Program-made: the position numbers and the translations under genes
Assembly: GCA_011525875.1 (NCBI GenBank)
Contig: WYBN01000009.1
Span: forward strand, 124,001 to 188,000
DNA length: 64,000 nt
Source: Melioribacteraceae bacterium
GTDB taxonomy: Bacteria > Bacteroidota > Ignavibacteria > Ignavibacteriales > Melioribacteraceae
Reading direction: 5' to 3'
Part shown: one piece after another, positions 27,487-38,502 of the stretch
How positions within the stretch are numbered: the first letter of the stretch is position 1
How the letters are laid out: each line of letters opens with the position of its first letter
Notes under the pieces: model-generated
What the model was told of the DNA's origin: nothing
Databases searched by the model: none
The model's input: only the letters and a program-made list of their open reading frames with translations

Positions 27487-28821
27487 ATGTCAATTGACAA
27501 CAAGCTTAAAGACCATATATTAGAATCAATCGGCGAGGGAGTTTTCACCGTTGATAAAAATTTTAAGATAAATTTCTTCAACAAAGCCGCCGAAAAAATT
27601 ACCGGATATTCAAGAGACGAGGTAAACGGTAGATTTTGCAAGCATGTATTTAAATCGGAACTTTGCTTTACAGATTGCCCGATAGGTATAGCGCTTAAAT
27701 CGAAAAAAACAATATATGATTTTGAATCCGACATTTGTACAAAATCAGGTGATCAAAAACCGATTAGAATGAACTCCGCTGTTCTTTATAATGAAAATGG
27801 CGACCCAACCGGGGGTATAATTACGTTCAGAGATATTTCGGAACTTGCTGTACTCAAAAAAAATCTGGAAAAGGATACCCAATTCCACGGCATTATAGGG
27901 CACAGTAAAGCAATGAGGGAAATATTTGAACTTATCCGTGAAATATCCGACTCTGATGCACCCGTGTTTATTCACGGCGAATCCGGCACCGGCAAAGAAA
28001 TGATAGTTAATGCTATTCAAGCGACTAGTAGAAGATGCAATCAACCTTTTATAAAAGTTAATTGCTCCGTCTTTCCAAGCAATTTGCTTGCAAGTGAGTT
28101 GTTCGGTCATGTAAAAGGCGCATTCACCGATGCAATAAAAGACAGACCAGGTAGATTTGAAGTTTCCGATAAAGGCACTATCTTTCTTGACGAAGTCGCC
28201 GAGATGCCTTTGCAAATGCAGCTGCAGTTATTAAGAGTGCTGCAAGAAGGCTCTTTTGAGCGGGTCGGCGAGTCCATAACAAGGAAGGTTGATACGCGCG
28301 TTATTGCAGCTACAAATATTAATATTGAAGAAGCTCTTGAAAGCGGAACCTTCCGCGAAGACCTTTATTATCGCTTGAGCGTAATTCCGATTGAAGTACC
28401 ACCTCTGCGCAGCCGGATGGAAGATTTGATTCCTCTCGTTAATCACTTCCTTAAGAAATTTTCGCTAATATATAAAAAGGAAATCAAAGAGATTGATGAC
28501 AAAGCTCTTGAAATCCTTCTCAGTTATAAATGGCCCGGAAATATAAGAGAACTTGAAAACGTGATCGAATATGCTTTTGTTAGGTCAGCTGATGCCGGCA
28601 CTTTGGAAGCATCAAAACTTCCCCCGATTGTACGTTTGAACCAAATAAAAAATACTGATGCTTTCGACAGAAAGGTTTTAGCGGAAAGATTTTCCGATAC
28701 TCCCAAAATCCTTTCTCTGCTTGAGAAGCATCAGTGGAATAAAACGAAGGTTGCCGAAGAACTCGGAATCGGAAGAACCACTCTCTGGCGTAAACTTAAG
28801 AGCCTGGGTCTTCACGAATAA
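27487..28821 (+). CDS. Sigma54-dependent transcriptional activator, PAS-AAA+-Fis
   Basis: 444 residues. Residues ~8-120 are a PAS sensor domain, with cysteines at 51, 60, 64 and 84 that suggest a redox, Fe-S or metal sensor. The AAA+ domain (~133-365) has Walker A 'GESGTGKE' (164-171), the sigma54-contact loop as GAFTDA (211-216; consensus GAFTGA), Walker B 'GTIFLDEVAEMP' and the arginine-finger region 'FREDLYYRLSVIPIEVPPLRSR'. The C-terminus is a Fis helix-turn-helix (~417-442, 'KTKVAEELGIGRTTLWRKL'). There is no receiver domain, so the signal is sensed directly by PAS. Two palindromes and a sigma54 promoter directly downstream indicate that it controls the cytochrome-rhodanese genes. Confidence 0.92.
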   Translation: MSIDNKLKDHILESIGEGVFTVDKNFKINFFNKAAEKITGYSRDEVNGRFCKHVFKSELCFTDCPIGIALKSKKTIYDFESDICTKSGDQKPIRMNSAVLYNENGDPTGGIITFRDISELAVLKKNLEKDTQFHGIIGHSKAMREIFELIREISDSDAPVFIHGESGTGKEMIVNAIQATSRRCNQPFIKVNCSVFPSNLLASELFGHVKGAFTDAIKDRPGRFEVSDKGTIFLDEVAEMPLQMQLQLLRVLQEGSFERVGESITRKVDTRVIAATNINIEEALESGTFREDLYYRLSVIPIEVPPLRSRMEDLIPLVNHFLKKFSLIYKKEIKEIDDKALEILLSYKWPGNIRELENVIEYAFVRSADAGTLEASKLPPIVRLNQIKNTDAFDRKVLAERFSDTPKILSLLEKHQWNKTKVAEELGIGRTTLWRKLKSLGLHE

Positions 28822-28826
28822 TTTCT

Positions 28827-28842
28827 GTTTCAACCGTTTCAA
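28827..28842. repeat. Pair of direct half-sites GTTTCAA
   Basis: GTTTCAA occurs at 28827-28833 and 28836-28842, five bases after the activator gene. The heptamer is the half-site of the palindrome at 28934-28952, so these may be weaker binding positions for the same activator. Confidence 0.4.
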
Positions 28843-28852
28843 ATCTTATTTC

Positions 28853-28873
28853 GGTGAAACAAATCGTTTCACC
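28853..28873. promoter_or_regulatory. Palindromic enhancer site 1 for the sigma54 activator
   Basis: A perfect 8-bp inverted repeat, GGTGAAAC-AAATC-GTTTCACC. Its centre is about 154 bases upstream of the transcription start predicted from the sigma54 promoter, a usual position for enhancer-binding proteins. Confidence 0.7.
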
Positions 28874-28933
28874 CCTACATAACCTTAGATAAAACAATCT
28901 GTTACAAACATCCGCAAGGTTCGTTCAATTGTC

Positions 28934-28952
28934 TTGAAACATTTCGTTTCAA
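28934..28952. promoter_or_regulatory. Palindromic enhancer site 2 for the sigma54 activator
   Basis: A perfect 7-bp inverted repeat, TTGAAAC-ATTTC-GTTTCAA, sharing the TGAAAC-N5-GTTTCA core and the 5-bp spacer with site 1. The centre-to-centre distance to site 1 is 80 bp, and it lies about 74 bases upstream of the predicted transcription start. Confidence 0.7.
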
Positions 28953-28991
28953 ATAAACAATAAATATCCCGCATTATAATAACTAAATAAC

Positions 28992-29006
28992 TGGCACTAC
29001 AGTTGC
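28992..29006 (+). promoter_or_regulatory. Sigma54 (-24/-12) promoter of the multiheme cytochrome gene
   Basis: TGGCAC (28992-28997), five bases, TTGC (29003-29006). This matches the sigma54 consensus TGGCAC-N5-TTGC exactly, with correct GG-GC spacing. The predicted start is ~29017, 26 bases before the ATG at 29043. Confidence 0.88.
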
Positions 29007-29042
29007 GACTGTTCTTTCACAAAATAAGATACAGGTATTGTA

Positions 29043-30434
29043 ATGAAAAAAATTCTCTTTCAATCACTAATCATCATCGGAGCATTTATCATTTTTACGG
29101 GTTGTGCCGAAGACAAGAATGATAATAATTCAACTGTGGAGCCAGGCGAAGTTGCGAAGGTAAATTCGTGCGAAGGTTGTCATACAAATTATACTCATCT
29201 TAAAGCTGTTTACACACCCGATCCGCCTTCCGACGGCGGCGCTGGATGCGGCGGAGATGCGCCGCACTATGAACCTTATGACAGAGTTTACATGGGAGGC
29301 GATGGCTATCAAGCTTACAAGAATGGCATTCACGGAAGTATGAGTTGCACTACCTGCCATAACGGGGTTGATGGAACCGATGACAAAGACGTTGCTCACT
29401 CAAATGATTTTATTAAACACCCTTCCTTAAGAGCGGAAGAAAAATGTGGAACTTGCCACCCAACGATTGTTAACAGGGCTGCTAACAGTCTTCACACTCA
29501 GGGCTGGGGACAAAAGAATATGGTTATCAAAAGAAGCGGAGCCGGTAATCATCCAACGGAATTCGGAAATCTTTCCGAACTTATGCAGGAAGGATATAAT
29601 CATAATTGTGCGAGATGCCATGGTACTTGCGGCGACTGTCACATTGTACGCCCGAAATCAGCGGGAGGAGGGTTATACAAAGGACACGAGTTCAGAAAAA
29701 CCCCTGACATGCTGGATAATTGTGTAGGATGCCATATCAGCCGAGGCGGACACGCTTACTTAGGGCAAGCTCCAGGAACAAAACCTGACGTTCATCTCAC
29801 TAAAGCCGGATATACTTGTATAAGCTGTCATACGGCTAATGAACTTCACGGCGACGGTCAGATTTATGAAACAAGGTATGCCATGCCGCTTCTTCCAAAA
29901 TGCGAGGATTGCCATTCCGGATTGGATAATGCTAATCTTTATCATACAGTGCATATTAATTCTTTCAATTGCTATACATGCCATTCGCAGGATTATAACA
30001 ATTGCGGCAGCTGCCATGTTAACGGTGTGGGAGCTAGAATTCCGGCACATCAGAAATTTAAAATAGCAGTTAATCCGATACCTCACCTCCGGCAGTATAG
30101 ACTGTCGACCGTGAGAGAAGCCCTTTCCGCGCCTGACAGTTGGAAAGAATATGGCGTGGATAATCTATCGAATTTTGATGTAGCCCCGACTTACAAATAC
30201 ACAACGCCTCATAATATTCAGAGATGGACATCGAGAACTACTGTAGATGAAGTAATTGATTCTAATCATCCTAATTGCGCTCAAGCATGTCATATTGTTA
30301 AAAATTCCGGCGGCGAATTCGTCAATAAAGAATTGTACTTGTTTGATTCAGATCTCTATGACTGGGAAAAAAATGCAAACAAAAATATTATCGTAGATGG
30401 AAGACTGCCCTCGAGATGGGGATTAAATAAATAA
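29043..30434 (+). CDS. Multiheme c-type cytochrome lipoprotein (ten CXXCH plus one CX3CH)
   Basis: 463 residues with a lipoprotein signal ('IIFTGC', lipidated Cys21). Canonical haem sites start at residues 43, 102, 135, 189, 196, 227, 259, 287, 310 and 321. Sites 4 and 5 are separated by two residues (CARCH-GT-CGDCH, 189-200). A further C-AQA-CH at 412-417 is a CX3CH motif, a known rarer haem-attachment variant. The protein should face the periplasm or be surface-exposed and carry electrons, possibly as a reductase. I do not recognise a named family. It is expressed from the sigma54 promoter at 28992-29006 and is followed after 37 bases by a tandem rhodanese lipoprotein. A lysine for a NrfA-type CXXCK site is not seen. 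Confidence 0.9.
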   Translation: MKKILFQSLIIIGAFIIFTGCAEDKNDNNSTVEPGEVAKVNSCEGCHTNYTHLKAVYTPDPPSDGGAGCGGDAPHYEPYDRVYMGGDGYQAYKNGIHGSMSCTTCHNGVDGTDDKDVAHSNDFIKHPSLRAEEKCGTCHPTIVNRAANSLHTQGWGQKNMVIKRSGAGNHPTEFGNLSELMQEGYNHNCARCHGTCGDCHIVRPKSAGGGLYKGHEFRKTPDMLDNCVGCHISRGGHAYLGQAPGTKPDVHLTKAGYTCISCHTANELHGDGQIYETRYAMPLLPKCEDCHSGLDNANLYHTVHINSFNCYTCHSQDYNNCGSCHVNGVGARIPAHQKFKIAVNPIPHLRQYRLSTVREALSAPDSWKEYGVDNLSNFDVAPTYKYTTPHNIQRWTSRTTVDEVIDSNHPNCAQACHIVKNSGGEFVNKELYLFDSDLYDWEKNANKNIIVDGRLPSRWGLNK

Positions 30435-30471: not shown

Positions 30472-31461
30472 ATGCAATTACGTAAATTATTTTATCTGAT
30501 GATGATACTGCCAATTTTGTTCTTAAGTCAAGCTTGTAGCGATGACAAATCAACAGACCCGGCAGAAGTAATTAATGAAGCCGAAGTGTTGGCAAAATAC
30601 ATCGAGGAAAATATCGGTGTGGCGAATGTTCAATCTATGGTCACGGCAAGCACAGTTTATAACAAAATTATTACCGGCGCTACCGACCAATTTGTAATGG
30701 ATATCCGCGCCGCTGCTGATTATGCAAACGGTCATATTCAAGGTGCTGTAAATGTCAGTTTGAAAGATATCGTTACATATTATGAGACAAACAACTTAAG
30801 CAGCTACGCTTCCGTTGTTATCGCTTGCTATACGGGTCAAACCGCCGGTTATGCAACGGCTCTATTAAGAATGCTCGGCTATAATAACGTAGCTGACCTT
30901 AAATGGGGAATGTGCAGCTGGAACGATCAGTGTGCAAACGGCTGGAAAAATGCTATCGGCAATAACTTCGCAAGCCAATTTGTTAATGCTCCAACCTCTA
31001 AGAATGCACCCGGCGATCTTCCTAAATTAAGTACGGGGAAGAAACAAGCCGCTGATATTCTTAAGATCAGAATTCAGGAATTATTAGCTTCAGCGGATCC
31101 ATTTGGCGATGCTAAAGTTACGGCTGCCTCCGTTTTCGCTAATTTGACCGGATATTATATTGTTAATTATTGGCCTCAAAATCATTATGAATTGGGTCAC
31201 ATACCCGGGGCTATTCAATATGCTAATTCGCCAAGCGATTTCGCCTTCAGCGCTGCTCTGAATACTTTACCGGTTGATAAACCCATTGCGATTTACTGCT
31301 ATACAGGCCAAACATCAGCCCACATGTCGGCTTATTTAAGAGTTTTGGGCTATGATGCTAAATCTTTATTGTTTGGCGTTAACACTATGTACTATGACCT
31401 TCTGCCGGCAAACAAATTTGCTGTTGAGACAGAAGTACACAATTATCCATTAGCGCCATAA
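30472..31461 (+). CDS. Exported tandem rhodanese-domain lipoprotein
   Basis: 329 residues with a lipobox ('FLSQAC', Cys22). Domain 1 (~45-155) has 'VMDIRAAADYANGHIQGAVN' and active-site loop CYTGQTA (Cys119). Domain 2 (~190-325) has 'HYELGHIPGAIQYAN' and CYTGQTS (Cys276), but the usual Asp-X-Arg before the GHIPGA segment is replaced by Asn-Tyr-Trp. Both catalytic cysteines are kept, so both domains could carry a persulfide. Rhodaneses transfer sulfane sulfur between donors such as thiosulfate or polysulfide and an acceptor. Its position 37 bases behind the multiheme cytochrome, with an AGGAG ribosome site and no other promoter seen, points to joint sigma54 control and extracytoplasmic sulfur chemistry (inference). 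Confidence 0.9.
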   Translation: MQLRKLFYLMMILPILFLSQACSDDKSTDPAEVINEAEVLAKYIEENIGVANVQSMVTASTVYNKIITGATDQFVMDIRAAADYANGHIQGAVNVSLKDIVTYYETNNLSSYASVVIACYTGQTAGYATALLRMLGYNNVADLKWGMCSWNDQCANGWKNAIGNNFASQFVNAPTSKNAPGDLPKLSTGKKQAADILKIRIQELLASADPFGDAKVTAASVFANLTGYYIVNYWPQNHYELGHIPGAIQYANSPSDFAFSAALNTLPVDKPIAIYCYTGQTSAHMSAYLRVLGYDAKSLLFGVNTMYYDLLPANKFAVETEVHNYPLAP

Positions 31462-31515: not shown

Positions 31516-31962
31516 ATGAGCGAGATGTTAGGAAATCATTATTTTATGGCAAGGAAGTACCCTGAAGCGCTGCTTGAGCTGCTGCCGTGTTTCTATGATA
31601 ATCCCAAAAATAATTTCATAAAACGTAAACTCATAATCTGTTATACTCAAGTAGGAAAAATAAACGAGGCATTTGATTTATTCGTCGATCTTGTGAAAGG
31701 AAATATTACGGCAATTACCAGTATTGACCCGGCAAAAGATGATTGCCCCTGCCCCGAACTTGTGAATAATATTGAGAAATTTGCAATTCCAGAAACGCTG
31801 GATTATTACGTTTTAGCCGGTATGCTTTGGCTCTATTGCGATCCGGGTCATTCACTCAAATATTTTGAGACCGCAGAGCGAATTTCGCCGGAAAGTAAAA
31901 AAATCCAGGATGTGATATTATCCATAAAATCTTTTATTAAATCGCATCAAACAGTGAGTTAG
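31516..31962 (+). CDS. TPR-like small protein, unknown function
   Basis: 148 residues, no signal peptide. The helical pattern 'HYFMARKYPEALLELLPCFYDNP...RKLIICYTQVGKINEAFDLFVDLV'-like and the later '..LAGMLWLYCDPGHSLKYFETAERISPE' resemble tetratricopeptide repeats (about three). A 'DDCPCPEL' segment near residue 75 contributes two close cysteines. It starts 54 bases after the rhodanese gene, beyond a stem-loop, so it may be a read-through member of the sigma54 unit or separately expressed. Role unknown. Confidence 0.6.
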   Translation: MSEMLGNHYFMARKYPEALLELLPCFYDNPKNNFIKRKLIICYTQVGKINEAFDLFVDLVKGNITAITSIDPAKDDCPCPELVNNIEKFAIPETLDYYVLAGMLWLYCDPGHSLKYFETAERISPESKKIQDVILSIKSFIKSHQTVS

Positions 31963-32087: not shown

Positions 32088-32912
32088 ATGCTTGGCGCCG
32101 TACATACTTTAAATATATTTTTGCCGGTTCTTTACGCGGCATCCTTTGCAGTTTATTATTCGGATTTTATTAAGCAGAAAAATTTTCTTTATAATTCCAA
32201 AAGAATCTTTCTTTTTATCACTCTGGTGCTGCATACCTTTTATTTGTTAGCCCGAACAATTGAGTTCAACCATCCGCCAATAACAAACAAATACGAAATT
32301 TTCACTGTGCTTTCATTTGCCATAGCTTTCAGTTATTTTGTGCTGGAACTGTTATCCGATATACGCGGCACAGGTGTTTTTATAATCTCATTTGCTCTTG
32401 TGTTTCAAGTTATATCCTCACTTCTTATCGAAGACTTAATAGAAGTAAAAGAAGTGTTAAGAAACAGATTACTCGGTCTGCATGTAATCAGCGCTTTGCT
32501 TGGGTATTCAGGATTTATTATGTCGGCGGTTTACGGTCTCCTTTTTACGAGCTTATACAAAGAAATAAAATTGAACAAGTTCGGTTTAATCTTCGAACGC
32601 CTTCCAAGTCTGGAAACTTTGGAGAAACTGAGTTTTTATTCCGTTGTTATCGGGTTTGTACTTCTTACTTTTTCAATTATAATCGGAATTATATGGCTGC
32701 CCGAAGCCTTCCCGAATTTTAGTTTTTTTGACCCTAAACTGATTTCTACATTTATTGTATGGTTTGTTTTCGGTTTCGGAATAGTTATGAAAACATTTTT
32801 TGGGTGGTATGGGAAAAAAGTAATTAAGTTCTTTCTTGCCGGTTTTATTTTAATGCTGCTCTCGATGTTTTTGTTTAATATTCTCGCTGATAGTTTTCAT
32901 TCGTTTTATTGA
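32088..32912 (+). CDS. CcsA/HemX-family membrane protein
   Basis: 274 residues, about eight transmembrane helices. It belongs to the cytochrome c assembly family (CcsA/CcmC/HemX). The helix with 'LLGLHVISALLGYSGFIMSAVYGLLF' carries the conserved histidine, and 'GIIWLPEAFPNFSFFDPKLISTFIVW' corresponds to the tryptophan-rich WWDPKE region of haem-handling proteins, here degenerate. Its position 30 bases before hemA is typical of HemX, proposed to affect glutamyl-tRNA reductase level or haem handling. It is shorter than full CcsA, so HemX-like is the better call. Confidence 0.75.
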   Translation: MLGAVHTLNIFLPVLYAASFAVYYSDFIKQKNFLYNSKRIFLFITLVLHTFYLLARTIEFNHPPITNKYEIFTVLSFAIAFSYFVLELLSDIRGTGVFIISFALVFQVISSLLIEDLIEVKEVLRNRLLGLHVISALLGYSGFIMSAVYGLLFTSLYKEIKLNKFGLIFERLPSLETLEKLSFYSVVIGFVLLTFSIIIGIIWLPEAFPNFSFFDPKLISTFIVWFVFGFGIVMKTFFGWYGKKVIKFFLAGFILMLLSMFLFNILADSFHSFY

Positions 32913-32942
32913 AAGAGTGTTTATAGAAAGAAAGTTATTTAA

Positions 32943-34229
32943 ATGAATTTAATCGGTATTTCCATAAATCACAGAACGGCTTCAATAGAGCTCCGCGAAG
33001 CACTTCATCTCTCCAGCGATGAAATAACAGAGTTGACTGCGCTGCTCAAACATTCCGCTCTTTCATCGGGCTTTATACTTTCAACATGCAATCGTACGGA
33101 AATATTTGGATTTACTAAGGACGGCAAATACAATTTTGAATCACTACTAAACCCATTGCTTAGCTTTAAGAAAATTAATGGACTCAGTCCTGAAAATTTC
33201 GACAAGTTTTTTTCATGCAGTGCGGTCAAGCATATATTCAAAGTTGCCTCAGGGATCGACTCTCTATTAATAGGCGATAGTCAAATACTCGGGCAAATAA
33301 AAGAAGCGTTTCAAACTTCAGAGGATTTATCGTTTATTGACAGTCTAACAAAGAGACTTTTTGATAGTGCGGTGAAAGCCGGAAGACGGGCAATAAAAGA
33401 AACTTTTATCGGGCAGGGCGCCGTAACGATAAGTTTCGCAGCCGTTCAGGTAGTACAGAAAATATTTTCAAATCTTGATTCAAAAACGGCGCTCGTAATC
33501 GGAGCAGGCGAGACAGGCGAACTTGCCGCAACCCATCTGAGCGAAAAGGGTATACACAAACTTGTAATCACCAATAGAACTCTGGAGAAAGCTGAAGCGC
33601 TTGCAAGAAAACTTAATGCGGAATCTATTGCCTTTGAGAACATAACGGATAACCTGCATTTATTTGATATAGTTTTTAGCGCTACCAGCTCACAAAGCTT
33701 TATTATAGGCAAAGGCAGCGTTGTGCAGATGATGAAAAAAAGAAGAGGCACGCCAGTTTGCCTAATGGATATAGCTTTACCAAGAGATATTGATCCGTCG
33801 GTACGGGAGCTTGAGAATGTCTTCTATCACGATATTGATTCTTTGAATGTTATTGTGAAGCAAAACTTGAAAAAACGCGAATCCGAATTGTCAAAAGTCG
33901 ATAAAATTATCATAGAAGAAATGATAAACTTTTTCAGCTGGTACAACACGCTTGAGGTTATACCTACAATAGTATCAGTCAGAGATTTTTTTGAATCGAT
34001 TGCAAATGATGAGCTTTCTAAAATTAAACACAAAGTAACGGAAGCAGATTATGAAAAAGTTGAAGATATGACCCGTCGTCTGCTCGGACGTTTGCTGCAT
34101 TATCCAACAATACGCTTAAAAGAAATTGCAGAACTTGGCAAGAATCCGCAGGAAGTTATAAATCACTCTGTTACGGTAAAAAATTTATTTAATCTAAACG
34201 AAAATAGCATTACAACCGATGAATCATAA
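32943..34229 (+). CDS. hemA: Glutamyl-tRNA reductase
   Basis: 428 residues, normal length. It reduces glutamyl-tRNA to glutamate-1-semialdehyde with NADPH, the first committed step of C5 haem synthesis. The catalytic cysteine (Cys49) lies in 'STCNRTE', substrate-loop residues in 'GIDSLLIGDSQILGQIKEA', and the NADPH site is 'IGAGETGELAATHL'. The C-terminal dimerisation helices end with 'RRLLGRLLHYPTIRLKEIA'. It follows the HemX-like gene by 30 bases. The last enzyme-level partner, HemL, is encoded at the far end of the cluster. Confidence 0.97.
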   Translation: MNLIGISINHRTASIELREALHLSSDEITELTALLKHSALSSGFILSTCNRTEIFGFTKDGKYNFESLLNPLLSFKKINGLSPENFDKFFSCSAVKHIFKVASGIDSLLIGDSQILGQIKEAFQTSEDLSFIDSLTKRLFDSAVKAGRRAIKETFIGQGAVTISFAAVQVVQKIFSNLDSKTALVIGAGETGELAATHLSEKGIHKLVITNRTLEKAEALARKLNAESIAFENITDNLHLFDIVFSATSSQSFIIGKGSVVQMMKKRRGTPVCLMDIALPRDIDPSVRELENVFYHDIDSLNVIVKQNLKKRESELSKVDKIIIEEMINFFSWYNTLEVIPTIVSVRDFFESIANDELSKIKHKVTEADYEKVEDMTRRLLGRLLHYPTIRLKEIAELGKNPQEVINHSVTVKNLFNLNENSITTDES

Positions 34230-34298
34230 ATTTTAAATCACTCTTTAATTCTTTTCGAATTATAATTATTTTATTTAATAAAAGATTTGGGATTCTGT

Positions 34299-35243
34299 TT
34301 GAATAAAAAAAATACTTTAATTATTGGCACAAGGTCAAGTGATTTGGCTCTTTGGCAGGCAAAATTTGTAAAAAAACAACTTGAAGCCAGAGTCAAAAAT
34401 CTCAGTGTTGAATTAAAACTGATAACTACGAAAGGCGATAAGATTATTGATGTCGCCCTTTCGAAAATCGGCGATAAAGGACTTTTTACAAAGGAACTTG
34501 AAATTGCATTGCTCTCAAAAAAAATTGATATTGCAGTTCACAGCCTTAAGGATTTGCAGACCGATATTCCTGCAGGATTAAAACTCGCCGCAGTGACTAA
34601 GAGGCATGATGTTGAGGATGTATTGATAGCAAGAAAAAAAGGCGTAACTGTAGAAACGCTTTCCGAAAATGCAACTGTAGCAACCGGCTCTTTGAGAAGA
34701 CGCTGCCAATTAAAGCACATCCGTCCAGATTTAAACATAGTAGAACTGCGCGGAAACGTGCCTACCCGGATAAAGAAATTTTTAGACTCGGATTGGGATG
34801 CGATAATTCTTGCACGCGCCGGAGTTGAAAGATTGAATCTTCGAAAATATATTTCGAGTGTAATTCCGAAGGAAATTTTACTGCCCGCTGTCGGACAGGG
34901 CGCTTTAGGAATAGAAATCCGAAGCAACGATGAATTTACCCTGGAGATTGTCCAATCGATACATGACACTAAAACATTTGAGGCGGTTTCAGCAGAGAGA
35001 GCGCTGCTGAAAAAATTAGAGGGCGGCTGTCAGGTTCCGATCGGAGCGTTCGCCGAGGTTAAATCGAACGGCTTGTATCTCGATGCAATCGTCGGTTCGG
35101 TTGACGGTTCAATTACTTTTAGAAAAAAAATGCGTGGGAAGATTACTGAAGCCGGGAAATTAGGTAGACGGTTAGCGGATGATCTGCTCAAAGCAGGAGC
35201 AAAAGAAATTTTAGAAGATATCTACAAATTAGTGAGACGGTAA
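34299..35243 (+). CDS. hemC: Hydroxymethylbilane synthase (porphobilinogen deaminase)
   Basis: About 314 residues. It polymerises four porphobilinogens to hydroxymethylbilane. Motifs: 'IIGTRSSDLALWQAKFV', 'GDKGLFTKELE', 'AVHSLKDLQTDIPAG', 'ATGSLRRRCQL', 'LRGNVPTRIKK', and the dipyrromethane-cofactor cysteine in 'EGGCQVPIGAFA'. No ATG is available. The TTG at 34299 has GGGA six bases upstream and gives the family's normal start; a TTG at 34287 is the alternative. Four bases separate its stop from hemD. Confidence 0.96.
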   Translation: MNKKNTLIIGTRSSDLALWQAKFVKKQLEARVKNLSVELKLITTKGDKIIDVALSKIGDKGLFTKELEIALLSKKIDIAVHSLKDLQTDIPAGLKLAAVTKRHDVEDVLIARKKGVTVETLSENATVATGSLRRRCQLKHIRPDLNIVELRGNVPTRIKKFLDSDWDAIILARAGVERLNLRKYISSVIPKEILLPAVGQGALGIEIRSNDEFTLEIVQSIHDTKTFEAVSAERALLKKLEGGCQVPIGAFAEVKSNGLYLDAIVGSVDGSITFRKKMRGKITEAGKLGRRLADDLLKAGAKEILEDIYKLVRR

Positions 35244-35247
35244 AAAA

Positions 35248-36033
35248 GTGAGCAAACCTTTAGAAAACAAATTGATCGTAATTACAAGGAGTTTTGATCA
35301 ATCTCCGGTTGAAATGAAACTCCTGAGCGATAACGGCGCAAAGGTAATTCCTTTGCCGACTATTAAGATCGTTCCGGTGGAAGATTATACGGAATTCTAT
35401 AACCAGATAAGAAAGATAAAACGTTTTGATTATATCATCTTCACCTCCGCTAATGCAGTAAATATGTTTCAAGACAAACTGGATGAGAAGGAACTCGAAA
35501 TCGATTACTCGAGATTGAAAGTTGTCGTCGTAGGCAGAAGAACTTCCGCTGCATGTTACGAAAGGAATATTCCCGTTGATATTATTCCCCAGGAGTTCAG
35601 TGCTTCGGGCGTGATAGAGGAATTGGATCAGTTCAATATCGAAGGAAGAAATTTTTTCATACCAGGCTCAAATATTTCACGGGACGAGTTGACAGAAAGC
35701 CTTATTGATGCCGGAGCGGGCGCGACTTTCATTCCGATATATCAAACTGTTAAGCCGGATGTTGAAGATATTCATAGCGAACTGGGGATATTAAAGAGCA
35801 ATGTTCCGGATATTTTTATATTCACAAGCCCGTCATCATTCAAGAATTATTTAGAACTGCTGGAAATTAAGGATCCTGTAAAATATTTCAGCGCAGCTGA
35901 AATTGCCGTTATCGGAAAGACTACAAGAAGAGAAATTGAAGAAGCCGGATTGAGGGCGGCATTCTATCCTAAAGAGCATACTGTTGAAGCGATAGTTCAT
36001 GCAATTATTGCCCGCTATGAAGTTGAAGACTAA
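35248..36033 (+). CDS. hemD: Uroporphyrinogen-III synthase
   Basis: 261 residues, two-lobed HemD fold. It closes and inverts ring D of hydroxymethylbilane. Sequence conservation in this family is weak; recognisable are 'IVITRSFDQSPVEMKLLSDNGA'-type start, 'YIIFTSANAVNMF', 'VVVVGRRTSAAC', 'IPGSNISRDELTESL', 'PDIFIFTSPSSFKNYL' and 'AVIGKTTRREIEEAG'. Position between hemC and hemE confirms the call. It starts with GTG, four bases after hemC. Confidence 0.93.
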   Translation: MSKPLENKLIVITRSFDQSPVEMKLLSDNGAKVIPLPTIKIVPVEDYTEFYNQIRKIKRFDYIIFTSANAVNMFQDKLDEKELEIDYSRLKVVVVGRRTSAACYERNIPVDIIPQEFSASGVIEELDQFNIEGRNFFIPGSNISRDELTESLIDAGAGATFIPIYQTVKPDVEDIHSELGILKSNVPDIFIFTSPSSFKNYLELLEIKDPVKYFSAAEIAVIGKTTRREIEEAGLRAAFYPKEHTVEAIVHAIIARYEVED

Positions 36034-36042
36034 GGAGGCGAG

Positions 36043-37092
36043 TTGAAAAAATTAAAGAATGATTTGTTTATTAGAGCATGCAAGAGGAAAAAAACTGACA
36101 GAACCCCGATCTGGATGATGCGGCAGGCAGGCAGATACCTTCCCGAATACCGGGCTGTGAGGGCTAAAGCAGATTTTATTACGATGTGCAAGACTCCGGA
36201 ACTTGCCGCCGAAGTAACTATTCAGCCGGTTGATATACTTGATGTTGATGCGGCTATTATCTTTTCGGATATCCTGGTTGTTCCCATGGCAATGGGCATG
36301 GATTTGGAAATGAAGGAAAGTGTCGGTCCGGTTTTTCATAAACCAATAAGGAATGAAGCCGATGCTTCCTCTCTAAAAAGTATTGATCCTTTCAAAGACT
36401 TGAAATATGTGCTAGATGCAGTTACGCTGACAAAAAAAAACTTGGACAACCGTGTTCCTCTTATAGGTTTCAGCGGGTCGCCATGGACCCTTCTTGCCTA
36501 TATGGTCGAAGGAAAAGGAAGCAAGAATTTTTCGGAAGTAAAAAAACTTATATACAGCCAGCCCGGCATTGCCCATAAACTGCTGGAAAAGATTTCTGAA
36601 GTCATAGCCGAATACCTCTCTGCTAAAATCGAGTGCGGATGCGACGCAATTCAAATCTTTGATACCTGGGGTGGAATTCTTCCCCAAAAGGATTTTTATG
36701 AGTTCTCTCTTAACTACGTTGAAAAAATTATCTCAAGTATCAAAAGGAAACAAGAGCCGGTAATATTCTTTGCGAAGGGAGTTAACTATAAGCCTAAGAA
36801 ACTGGCAAAATGCGGCGCTGATGTAATTGGTTTTGATTGGACTGCTGACTTATCGCAGTTGAGGAATGAAATCGGCAACAAAACTGCATTACAAGGTAAT
36901 CTTGATCCGAATGTTTTGTACTCTTCGCATGAAATCATTGCAAGGCGCGCAAAAGCGGTTTTGAAATCTTTCGGTAAAGGAAACGGTCATATATTTAATC
37001 TCGGACACGGTATATTGCCAGACGTCCCGCCCGAAAACGCTAAATTTTTAGTTGATTATGTTAAAAAAGAAAGCATTAAATATCACGGATGA
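36043..37092 (+). CDS. hemE: Uroporphyrinogen decarboxylase
   Basis: 349 residues, standard size. It removes four acetate carboxyls from uroporphyrinogen III to give coproporphyrinogen III. Signature 'PIWMMRQAGRYLPEYR', active-site 'IIFSDILVVPMAMGM', 'FSGSPWTLLAYMVEGKGSK', 'IFDTWGGILP' and 'ALQGNLDPNVLY' with C-terminal 'FNLGHGILPDVPPEN' are present. It begins with TTG, but a very strong AAGGAGG ribosome site (36034-36039) precedes it. It is nine bases behind hemD. Confidence 0.97.
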   Translation: MKKLKNDLFIRACKRKKTDRTPIWMMRQAGRYLPEYRAVRAKADFITMCKTPELAAEVTIQPVDILDVDAAIIFSDILVVPMAMGMDLEMKESVGPVFHKPIRNEADASSLKSIDPFKDLKYVLDAVTLTKKNLDNRVPLIGFSGSPWTLLAYMVEGKGSKNFSEVKKLIYSQPGIAHKLLEKISEVIAEYLSAKIECGCDAIQIFDTWGGILPQKDFYEFSLNYVEKIISSIKRKQEPVIFFAKGVNYKPKKLAKCGADVIGFDWTADLSQLRNEIGNKTALQGNLDPNVLYSSHEIIARRAKAVLKSFGKGNGHIFNLGHGILPDVPPENAKFLVDYVKKESIKYHG

Positions 37093-37125
37093 TCATGATG
37101 TTACTTGCTTTGAATAGGAGTTATA

Positions 37126-38502
37126 ATGTTCGACATAAACTTAGACCTTGTAAAAAAATATGACAGACCCGGCCCGCGTTATACAAGCTATCCGACGGCA
37201 CCGCAGTTTCACGGTCAATTTACTCGGGTTGATTATCTAAACGAAATAATAAAAACAAACGCCGCAATAAATACACCTGATCTCTCATTGTATTTTCATA
37301 TACCTTTCTGCGATACGCTTTGCTACTTCTGCGGCTGCAATATGATAATTTCCCGGAACCGCGAAAGAATAAGTGCCTATATCCGATACATGAAAAAGGA
37401 AATCAATTTACTCAACAATTACATTAAGCCGGAAAGAAAAGTAACACAGCTTCACTGGGGCGGTGGAACGCCTACCCACCTTAAACCGGAGGAGATTTCG
37501 GAATTATCATCTTATATTTTGCAGAATTTTAATTTCAGCGATCATGCGGAGAACGGATGCGAAATTGATCCGCGTGAATTAACGAAAGAACATTTAGCTG
37601 CTTTGCGCCAAGGAGGCTTCAACAGAATCAGCATGGGAGTGCAGGATTTTGACGAAAGAGTTCAGAAAGCTGTTAACAGAATTCAACCCGAGGAAATGAC
37701 ACGCAAGGTTGTTCATTGGATAAGGGAATTGAATTTCGACAGCATCAATCTCGATTTGATCTACGGGCTTCCTTTTCAGACAGTTGATGAATTCTCAAAA
37801 ACTATTGAAAAGATTATTGAAATATCACCCGATAGAATTGCATTGTTTAATTATGCTCATGTCCCATGGATGAAAAAACACATGAACTTAATTAGACCCG
37901 CGGATATACCCTCGCCCGAAGAAAAGCTCGAGATACTTAAAATGTCGATATCAAAACTTACGGATGCAGGCTATGTATTTATTGGCATGGATCATTTTGC
38001 CAAACCGGATGACGATCTATCAAAAGCCCTTGCCGAAAAAAGACTTTATAGAAATTTTCAGGGGTATAGCACAAATTCAGGAGCCGATCTATACGCACTC
38101 GGAATTACAAGCATCAGCCAGCTTGGTGAGGTATACGCCCAAAACATGAAAACCGAGAAAGAGTATTACGATTCGCTCGATTCTTCCACTCTGCCCATCA
38201 CAAAAGGTTACAGGCTTAATAAAGACGATATAATCCGCAAGCATGTAATAATGAAAATCATGTGTGATTTTGAACTTGACTTTGCCGCCGTTGAGGAAAA
38301 GTTTAATATTGATTTTGAGAATTATTTTGCATGGGGGTTGAATAATCTCGGTGAATTAATTGATGACAACCTGGTTAAGATCGACAGCGGTAAATTGACG
38401 GTAAGTGAAATGGGGAGGCTTTTGATTAGAAACGTAGCAATGAATTTTGACGGATTTATCGAACGAAAAGAAGACACTGCCAAATACTCGAGAACAGTCT
38501 GA
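37126..38502 (+). CDS. hemN: Oxygen-independent coproporphyrinogen III oxidase (radical SAM)
   Basis: 458 residues. It decarboxylates two propionates of coproporphyrinogen III to give protoporphyrinogen IX without oxygen. The radical SAM cluster is CX3CX2C at Cys62, 66 and 69, with the extra Cys71 of the HemN family. The N-terminal 'YDRPGPRYTSYPTA' segment is specific to true HemN and absent from the haem chaperone HemW. 'RISMGVQDFDERVQKAVNRIQ' and 'IYGLPFQTVDEF' complete the picture. A stronger AGGAG site lies before the ATG. It is the last of the tightly linked hem genes. Confidence 0.96.
   Translation: MFDINLDLVKKYDRPGPRYTSYPTAPQFHGQFTRVDYLNEIIKTNAAINTPDLSLYFHIPFCDTLCYFCGCNMIISRNRERISAYIRYMKKEINLLNNYIKPERKVTQLHWGGGTPTHLKPEEISELSSYILQNFNFSDHAENGCEIDPRELTKEHLAALRQGGFNRISMGVQDFDERVQKAVNRIQPEEMTRKVVHWIRELNFDSINLDLIYGLPFQTVDEFSKTIEKIIEISPDRIALFNYAHVPWMKKHMNLIRPADIPSPEEKLEILKMSISKLTDAGYVFIGMDHFAKPDDDLSKALAEKRLYRNFQGYSTNSGADLYALGITSISQLGEVYAQNMKTEKEYYDSLDSSTLPITKGYRLNKDDIIRKHVIMKIMCDFELDFAAVEEKFNIDFENYFAWGLNNLGELIDDNLVKIDSGKLTVSEMGRLLIRNVAMNFDGFIERKEDTAKYSRTV

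What the first reader, a model, noticed from the sequence alone, without database searches (positions are those of the whole stretch)
28853..28952. Two palindromes with the core TGAAAC-N5-GTTTCA form a likely upstream activating sequence
The two sites have 8- and 7-bp perfect arms, the same 5-bp spacer and a common core. They lie 80 bp apart at about -154 and -74 of the sigma54 start. Two extra GTTTCAA half-sites occur at 28827-28842. This gives a specific testable operator for a regulator whose family usually has unknown sites.
Basis: seen in the sequence. Interest (0 to 1): 0.55.

Follow-up and report, generated by a model that had tools for sequence, protein, structure and literature searches.

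The report
Conserved enhancer of a cytochrome operon
Two short palindromes in front of a multi-heme cytochrome operon are very probably the docking sites of the activator protein encoded next door; the same arrangement recurs in related bacteria, and a sister group of activators goes with a one-letter variant of the site.

Summary
TGAAAC-N5-GTTTCA occurs twice in the held 2.28 Mb genome (81% complete), at 28855-28871 and 28935-28951, 80 bp apart; the second starts 57 bp before a -24/-12 sigma54 element.

Of 28 orthologous cytochrome promoters with usable upstream DNA (the window's included), 28 carry the proximal palindrome (11 exact, 15 with one mismatch, 2 with two), 55-60 bp from the -24 element in 27. 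A second site lies 79-81 bp further up in 11 of 26. Homologues of the adjacent PAS/AAA+/Fis-HTH gene that face other targets keep the site with 0-2 mismatches.

Classed by motif alone, residue 429 sorts 74 of 77; the next column by information, 425, sorts 67. In 8 of 9 genomes with both paralogues, each has its own form in the majority. On the tree the residue switches once.

This is a new, well-supported operator of a known kind. Binding, signal and regulon were not tested experimentally.

The parts
27487..28821 (+). PAS + sigma54-AAA+ + Fis-type HTH activator (bEBP), GAFTDA at 211, recognition helix GIGRTTLWRKLK with G429 just before it
   Evidence: Pfam/NCBIfam; alignment of 41 homologues; GAFTDA and G429 positions; model pLDDT 84.8 with helices 419-426 and 430-439
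28827..28841 (+). Two direct GTTTCA half-sites (28827-28832, 28836-28841), 9 bp apart
   Evidence: sequence; a pair of GTTTCA half-sites 9-10 bp apart stands upstream of the proximal site in 13 of 26 promoters, the window's included
28853..28873 (.). Distal palindrome GGTGAAAC-N5-GTTTCACC (core 28855-28871), about -154
   Evidence: distal site of 2 mismatches or fewer at 79-81 bp from the proximal one in 11 of 26 promoters
28890..28906 (.). Weak palindrome TAAAAC-N5-GTTACA (2 mismatches); function doubtful
   Evidence: conservation not tested
28934..28952 (.). Proximal palindrome TTGAAAC-N5-GTTTCAA (core 28935-28951), about -74
   Evidence: 0-2 mismatches in 28 of 28 promoters, the window's included
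28992..29007 (+). sigma54 -24/-12 promoter TGGCACTACAGTTGCG
   Evidence: sequence; such an element begins 55-60 bp after the start of the proximal palindrome in 27 of 28 promoters; sigma54 gene in the genome
29043..30434 (+). Target: lipoprotein-like multiheme cytochrome c (10 CxxCH + 1 CxxxCH)
   Evidence: cysteine 21 and the cysteines and histidines of all 11 motifs invariant in 18 aligned orthologues
30472..31461 (+). Rhodanese-domain protein (two stretches), next in the presumed operon (37-bp gap)
   Evidence: Pfam, gap
31516..31962 (+). Small TPR-like protein (MSEMLGN...), frequent partner of these regulators

Best explanation
The two palindromes, with the upstream half-sites, are the upstream activating sequence (enhancer) of the cytochrome operon. 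Dimers of the PAS-type activator encoded at 27487-28821 bind the palindromes through their Fis-type HTH, with arms of 6 bp spaced by 5 bp. They assemble into an AAA+ ring there, loop over the AT-rich stretch of about 40 bp and remodel sigma54-RNA polymerase held at 28992-29007. This switches on the cytochrome, the rhodanese and probably the TPR gene when the PAS domain (with conserved cysteines) senses its unknown, possibly redox- or sulfur-related signal. Shown computationally: the sites, their conservation and spacing, the promoter, the gene order, and the match between recognition helix and half-site across the family. Inferred: direct binding, oligomerisation, looping, activation (rather than repression), the signal, and operon length.
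For: Unique pair in the genome. Present in 28 of 28 usable orthologous promoters, at a nearly fixed distance from the -24 element. Where 354-945 bp separate regulator and cytochrome (G002, G034, G010, G004, G033) the site stays with the promoter, not with the regulator's stop codon. In G045 the regulator homologue is on another contig but both palindromes (1 and 0 mismatches) remain at the cytochrome. Where the regulator faces another target, TGAAAC-type palindromes of 0-2 mismatches are still there: a cysteine-desulfurase-like gene in G028 and a gene that begins alike in G038; a TPR gene plus multiheme cytochromes in G007, G008 and G009; a TPR gene in G048; TPR plus cytochrome genes in four KSB1-labelled MAGs, L136, L138, L141, L186. 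Unbiased 6-mer count downstream of 43 G/S regulators: GTTTCA is first, 129 occurrences in 37 of 43 loci, 5.8 expected; downstream of 35 N/D/H regulators GTTGCA is first, 112 in 34 of 35 loci, 5.8 expected. Residue 429 sorts the motif in 74 of 77 and lies directly before the recognition helix in the model. sigma54 is encoded.
Against: No binding or expression data. The residue class changes once on the tree; the majority-motif label changes at least 4 times there, because of noisy rows. Three regulators disagree (L073, L116, L160). The distal palindrome is recognisable (2 mismatches or fewer) in only 14 of 26 promoters. The Calditrichota-labelled L146 has no better site than a 2-mismatch palindrome. 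The proximal site centre at about -74 is nearer than the 100-250 bp usual in Clostridiales (PMC6615313, passage). A -24/-12 element and a palindrome of at most 3 mismatches were search criteria, so their presence there is partly by selection, which chose the palindrome alone, shows the same by eye. Many of the regulators are close relatives, so counts are not independent.
Confidence: 0.9

Rival explanations
1. The palindromes are operators of a different transcription factor, or of the adjacent protein acting as a repressor, and only happen to lie near a sigma54 promoter.
For: 14 of 40 G-class regulator genes examined carry a palindrome of 2 mismatches or fewer 9-68 bp before their own start codon, with no sigma54 element matched, which looks like repression of the regulator's own promoter, so the protein may also repress.
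Against: Half-site sequence goes together with the recognition helix of this very protein; two paralogues in one genome have different sites; sites sit at a nearly fixed distance upstream of a sigma54 element, not over it.
Confidence: 0.06
2. Chance palindromes or a structural element (hairpin, terminator) of the transcript from the regulator gene.
For: Single exact palindromes are not rare in the family (41 of 79 genomes have one; the reversed control is in 29 of 79 by my count).
Against: 0 in 100 shuffles; present in 28 of 28 promoters whose surroundings differ by eye; no terminator-like site in 28700-29100; the site stays with the promoter when the regulator is distant.
Confidence: 0.01
3. 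The site is bound by this regulator, but the functional unit is mainly the proximal palindrome; distal palindrome and half-sites are accessory. (Compatible with the best explanation.)
For: Proximal site 28 of 28; distal palindrome of 2 mismatches or fewer only 14 of 26; many promoters have direct half-sites instead.
Against: 22 of 26 promoters have at least one exact half-site 60-110 bp upstream of the proximal site (my count), and in the window the distal palindrome has the longer arms.
Confidence: 0.35

Closest known systems
NtrC-family enhancers (e.g. NtrC, recalled site TGCACC-N5-GGTGCA)
   Same: Two 6-bp arms with a 5-bp spacer, sites upstream of a -24/-12 promoter, Fis-type HTH, AAA+ activator (NtrC side recalled)
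   Different: Different half-site; N-terminal PAS instead of a phosphorylated receiver; the NtrC helix and site are recalled, not compared here
DVU2106 / orp operons of Desulfovibrio vulgaris (PMC3897727, passages; PMC4641369, passages)
   Same: One-component activator with the GAFTDA variant, palindromic sites upstream of sigma54 promoters, own gene expressed from a sigma70 promoter
   Different: Target is the orange-protein system; IHF sites lie between enhancer and promoter there, while a strict IHF consensus was matched here near one promoter only (G064; none in the window); the DVU2106 site sequence was not seen
DVU3142 and the octaheme cytochrome (Ohc) operon (PMC4641369, section 10)
   Same: A one-component activator predicted to control a neighbouring multiheme cytochrome operon from a sigma54 promoter
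   Different: GAFTGA rather than GAFTDA; Ohc complex with different genes; motif not given in the text read
PrdR and the TGT-N10-12-ACA group (PMC6615313, passages)
   Same: Best NCBIfam profile hit of the window regulator is PrdR (357 bits, cutoff 795)
   Different: Below the cutoff; half-sites TGT/ACA with a 10-12 bp spacer, not TGAAAC-N5-GTTTCA

Membership tests
bEBP (sigma54 enhancer-binding protein) | sigma54-interaction AAA+ domain | tested here: met
   PF00158, 225 bits, cutoff 20.2; best fold match 1ny5 (sigma54 activator), Z 30.4, 250 residues, rmsd 1.8
bEBP (sigma54 enhancer-binding protein) | GAFTGA loop or a tolerated variant | tested here: met
   GAFTDA in the window protein and in 64 of 78 regulators; PMC4641369 lists GAFTDA among variants that would keep activity (passage)
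bEBP (sigma54 enhancer-binding protein) | Fis-type HTH at the C terminus | tested here: met
   PF02954, 47.7 bits, cutoff 22
bEBP (sigma54 enhancer-binding protein) | sigma54 in the same genome and a -24/-12 promoter at the target | tested here: met
   PF04552 hit, 199.7 bits; element at 28992-29007, recurring in the orthologous promoters
bEBP (sigma54 enhancer-binding protein) | ATPase activity, ring formation, DNA binding in vitro | not testable with these tools
   needs purified protein
Upstream activating sequence of this regulator | Conserved upstream of orthologous targets at a constrained distance from the promoter | tested here: met
   28 of 28 usable, 55-60 bp in 27; G001 not usable, G005 only a 3-mismatch site
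Upstream activating sequence of this regulator | Sequence varies with the DNA-binding domain of the regulator | tested here: met
   74 of 77 by residue 429, but a single switch of the residue class on the tree
Upstream activating sequence of this regulator | Bound by the regulator | not testable with these tools
   needs EMSA or footprint
PrdR equivalog | NCBIfam NF041552 cutoff 795 bits | tested here: not met
   357 bits
TGT-N10-12-ACA enhancer group (NifA/FhlA/PrdR type) | TGT and ACA half-sites with 10-12 bp between | tested here: not met
   core is TGAAAC-N5-GTTTCA; its ends are TGA and TCA in most of the 28 sites

The most novel reading that the evidence does not exclude
The residue capping the recognition helix (position 429: Gly/Ser versus Asn/Asp/His) is a specificity switch that changes base 3 of the half-site from A to C (TGAAAC to TGCAAC), and so keeps apart the regulons of paralogous cytochrome activators that coexist in one cell.
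Probability: 0.4. Interest if true: 0.65.

Novelty: new member of a known kind. Interest (0 to 1): 0.5.

Why it matters
It gives a defined operator, promoter and candidate activator for multiheme cytochrome operons in a group known mostly from metagenome-assembled genomes (Ignavibacteria and neighbours); my paper searches (listings) turned up nothing on a sigma54 activator of such genes there. It also offers a two-state test of how this HTH type reads DNA: one residue, one base, in paralogues within the same genome. Searches with the two half-sites can now suggest which cytochrome operons go with which regulator.

Tried and rejected
The strict N/D/H-class pattern (GCAAC-N5-GTTGCA plus -24/-12 within 33-58 bp) hit 0 of 391 genomes: that class more often has half-sites, or palindromes without a strict sigma54 match at that distance, so its architecture is not the same. 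A de novo count of perfect 6-bp inverted repeats was less clear. In 42 G-class loci, spacer 3 gave 20 loci (5.2 in shuffles), spacers 4 and 5 gave 16 each (7.0, 6.8), spacers 1 and 9 gave 15 each (6.6, 7.0); in 35 N/D/H loci spacer 5 was highest with 19 (4.4). Spacer-3 hits in the G class are probably the same sites read one base in (GAAACA-N3-TGTTTC), but I did not count that separately. Independent origins of the switch were sought and not found: one independent pair only (quick tree, last 60 residues cut). The grouping was defined by the residue itself; one search repeats the test with motif-defined classes (1 tie dropped: L183; the scanned stretch was widened to the cytochrome start in five loci). 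Four unrelated regulators (L088-2201, L092+7003, L200+12716, L203+2167) were dropped before the counts of 78; copies with the same last 120 residues were merged, close relatives were not. In one search four of the nine genome pairs lie in one G genome by handle; five (G051, G046, G033, G062, G068) were paired by me through a shared accession series and equal contig lengths; the stretch was widened in three loci. In one search two of 30 orthologue genomes were left out: G001 (5 bp of upstream DNA) and G005 (broken gene, wrong start taken by the script). G005 was checked afterwards: a 3-mismatch site before a TGGCAC-N5-TTG element, no exact half-site, and no close regulator at E <= 1e-120. In the IHF scan the G001 hits come from a wrong stretch (index slip) and do not count. 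The cytochrome structure model was too poor to use (pLDDT 37.5). One class-wide hit, G358, is unassigned: it lies over a thioredoxin-like ORF before a small cytochrome-like ORF. The motif was not seen in print: paper searches (listings only), with text searches of PMC4641369 and PMC6615313; searches were for background.

Full report
WHAT IS THERE. Between the stop codon of a regulator gene (27487-28821) and the start of a cytochrome gene (29043) lie 221 bp. They hold, in order, two direct GTTTCA half-sites (28827, 28836), a palindrome TGAAACAAATCGTTTCA (28855-28871), a weak palindrome (28890-28906), a second palindrome TGAAACATTTCGTTTCA (28935-28951) and a sigma54-type element TGGCACTACAGTTGCG (28992-29007). 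The exact motif occurs only here in the held genome (2.28 Mb, 81% complete; 2 matches, reversed control 0) and never in 100 shuffles of the window. With one mismatch allowed the genome has 24 against 11 control sites, so relaxed matches elsewhere are mostly noise.

THE REGULATOR. The upstream gene encodes PAS, sigma54-AAA+ and Fis-type HTH domains. The loop that touches sigma54 reads GAFTDA, as in 64 of 78 relatives, a variant that PMC4641369 lists among those expected to keep activity (passage). The PAS domain has cysteines 51 and 64 invariant in 41 aligned relatives and cysteine 60 in at least 90%. The model (pLDDT 84.8) puts the last two helices at 419-426 and 430-439; the AAA+ domain matches the sigma54 activator 1ny5 (Z 30.4, 250 residues, rmsd 1.8). 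The genome encodes sigma54.

CONSERVATION. The cytochrome has full-length or nearly full-length orthologues in 30 of 79 family genomes including its own (in one, G005, the gene is in two pieces). In 25 of the 30 the regulator lies upstream in the same fetched stretch. In G053, G063 and G001 the contig starts about 141, 117 and 5 bp before the cytochrome; in G045 the regulator homologue is on another contig; in G005 none was found at E <= 1e-120. In 28 promoters (the window's included; G001 and G005 left out) a palindrome of 0, 1 or 2 mismatches (11, 15 and 2 promoters) stands upstream of a -24/-12 element. The distance from palindrome start to -24 start is 55-60 bp in 27 and 69 in G010. The three bases of each arm next to the spacer, AAC and GTT, are invariant in all 28. 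The script required a sigma54 match and at most 3 mismatches, which picks the palindrome without a promoter, gives the same picture by eye. A distal palindrome of 2 mismatches or fewer is found in 14 of the 26 with enough DNA, 11 of them at 79-81 bp. Exact GTTTCA/TGAAAC half-sites stand 60-110 bp upstream of the proximal site in 22 of 26, and as a direct pair 9-10 bp apart in 13 of 26 (my counts).

SPECIFICITY OF THE PATTERN. The pair of exact palindromes 48-78 bp apart occurs in 3 of 391 sampled class genomes, each time before this cytochrome (G000, G010, G030). One palindrome plus a sigma54 element occurs in 16 of 391, reversed control 0: 14 before this cytochrome, one in G028 between a regulator homologue and a cysteine-desulfurase-like gene, one (G358) unassigned. 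In the own genome the only match to that strict pattern is this one, so the regulon may be one operon; in D. vulgaris most such regulators have one to four (PMC4641369, section 6). Exact single palindromes without context are in 41 of 79 family genomes, the reversed control in 29 (my count), so they mean little alone.

THE SITE BELONGS TO THE REGULATOR. Regulator homologues without this cytochrome still have TGAAAC-type palindromes of 0-2 mismatches: G008, G007 and G009 (a TPR gene plus 8-15-heme cytochromes), G048 (TPR, then ORFs that resemble CcsB and HemA by eye), G028 (a 491-residue cysteine-desulfurase-like protein) and G038 (a gene that begins alike and runs off the contig). Using the small TPR-like gene as a probe, 75 loci were fetched from named genomes; labels include Melioribacteraceae, Ignavibacteriales, Bacteroidetes, KSB1, Calditrichota, Chlorobiota and Neomarinimicrobiota, and some repeat loci already held. 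With the earlier loci they gave 82 distinct regulators, 78 after four unrelated ones were dropped.

TWO HALF-SITES, TWO HELICES. Downstream of 43 regulators with Gly or Ser before the recognition helix, the most enriched 6-mer is GTTTCA/TGAAAC (129 occurrences in 37 of 43 loci, 5.8 expected from the same loci). Downstream of 35 with Asn, Asp or His it is GTTGCA/TGCAAC (112 in 34 of 35, 5.8 expected). Counting all four letters at base 3, the 42 Gly regulators have A 130, C 7, G 20, T 7; 17 Asn A 6, C 58, G 2, T 0; 16 Asp A 3, C 50, G 0, T 0; 2 His A 1, C 9, G 0, T 1; 1 Ser A 3, C 1. When regulators are classed by motif alone (77; one tie dropped), residue 429 sorts 74, the next column by information (425) 67. 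The three exceptions are L116 (regulator not at its target), L073 (also uses TGGAAC) and L160 (mixed). In nine genomes that hold both kinds, the Gly paralogue has the A form in the majority in 9 of 9, and the Asn/Asp paralogue the C form in 8 of 9. This argues against genome composition as the cause. It does not rule out shared ancestry: on a tree built without the HTH, the residue class changes once, and the majority-motif label at least 4 times because of noisy rows. Causality of residue 429 is therefore a proposal. NtrC, as I recall, has Gly at this place and a TGCACC half-site, so the rule cannot be universal.

OWN-PROMOTER SITES. Within 200 bp upstream of 40 Gly-class regulator genes there are 39 TGAAAC half-sites against 4, 5 and 4 of the C, G and T forms; 14 of the 40 have a palindrome of 2 mismatches or fewer 9-68 bp before the assumed start codon, and no sigma54 element was matched (the Ser regulator L191 has one at -199). 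This suggests self-repression in a subset. The window gene has no such palindrome, and the 17 Asn and 16 Asp regulators do not show an excess of their own form (1 and 1).

MECHANISM. The best reading is ordinary enhancer action: dimers on two palindromes, an AAA+ ring, a loop over a 40-bp stretch of 80% AT, opening of sigma54-polymerase. The genes switched on are a lipoprotein-like cytochrome with 11 heme motifs, a rhodanese-domain protein and probably the TPR gene. A CcsB/cytochrome-assembly gene and hemA, hemC, a hemD-like gene (below cutoff), hemE and hemN follow in the same direction with gaps of 4-125 bp, so heme supply may be co-expressed, which is inference. Rhodanese here, and cysteine desulfurase plus a sulfur-transport protein fused to rhodanese beside the G028 homologue, hint at sulfur chemistry as signal or purpose.

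NOVELTY. The kind of thing is known. The motif, its pairing with this PAS regulator and the A/C split were not found in the papers searched (listings, plus passages or sections of PMC4641369 and PMC6615313; passages of PMC3897727 and PMC11407668 were read for background). Most subscription papers are outside that library.

Noticed in passing
window 31516-31962; L130-L204: A small TPR-like protein (starts MSEMLGN, conserved CPC-type stretch) is a frequent partner of these activators, often the first gene after the enhancer, before a split-Soret-like or 7-15-heme cytochrome; no NCBIfam family and only a sub-threshold TPR hit for the window copy.
   Followed up: partly
window 27487-28821, residues 51, 60, 64: Conserved cysteines in the PAS domain, a possible redox or metal sensor.
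   Followed up: no
L114 (G028:C4): A homologous regulator with a perfect site precedes a cysteine-desulfurase-like gene and sits beside sulfur-transport genes, one fused to a rhodanese domain.
   Followed up: partly
L092 (G010:C76): Two sets of palindromes with a sigma54 element between regulator and cytochrome: one directly after the regulator, one at the cytochrome.
   Followed up: no
L061 (G005:C34): Cytochrome gene in two pieces, site decayed to 3 mismatches, no close regulator found in that genome: a possible case of joint loss, or an assembly fault.
   Followed up: partly
window 32088-38502: Cytochrome-assembly gene followed by hemA, hemC, hemD-like, hemE, hemN in one direction behind the cytochrome operon.
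   Followed up: partly
L079, L080, L081 upstream of the regulator: Perfect TGAAAC-N5-GTTTCA 62-68 bp before the regulator's own start, without a sigma54 element: likely self-repression.
   Followed up: partly
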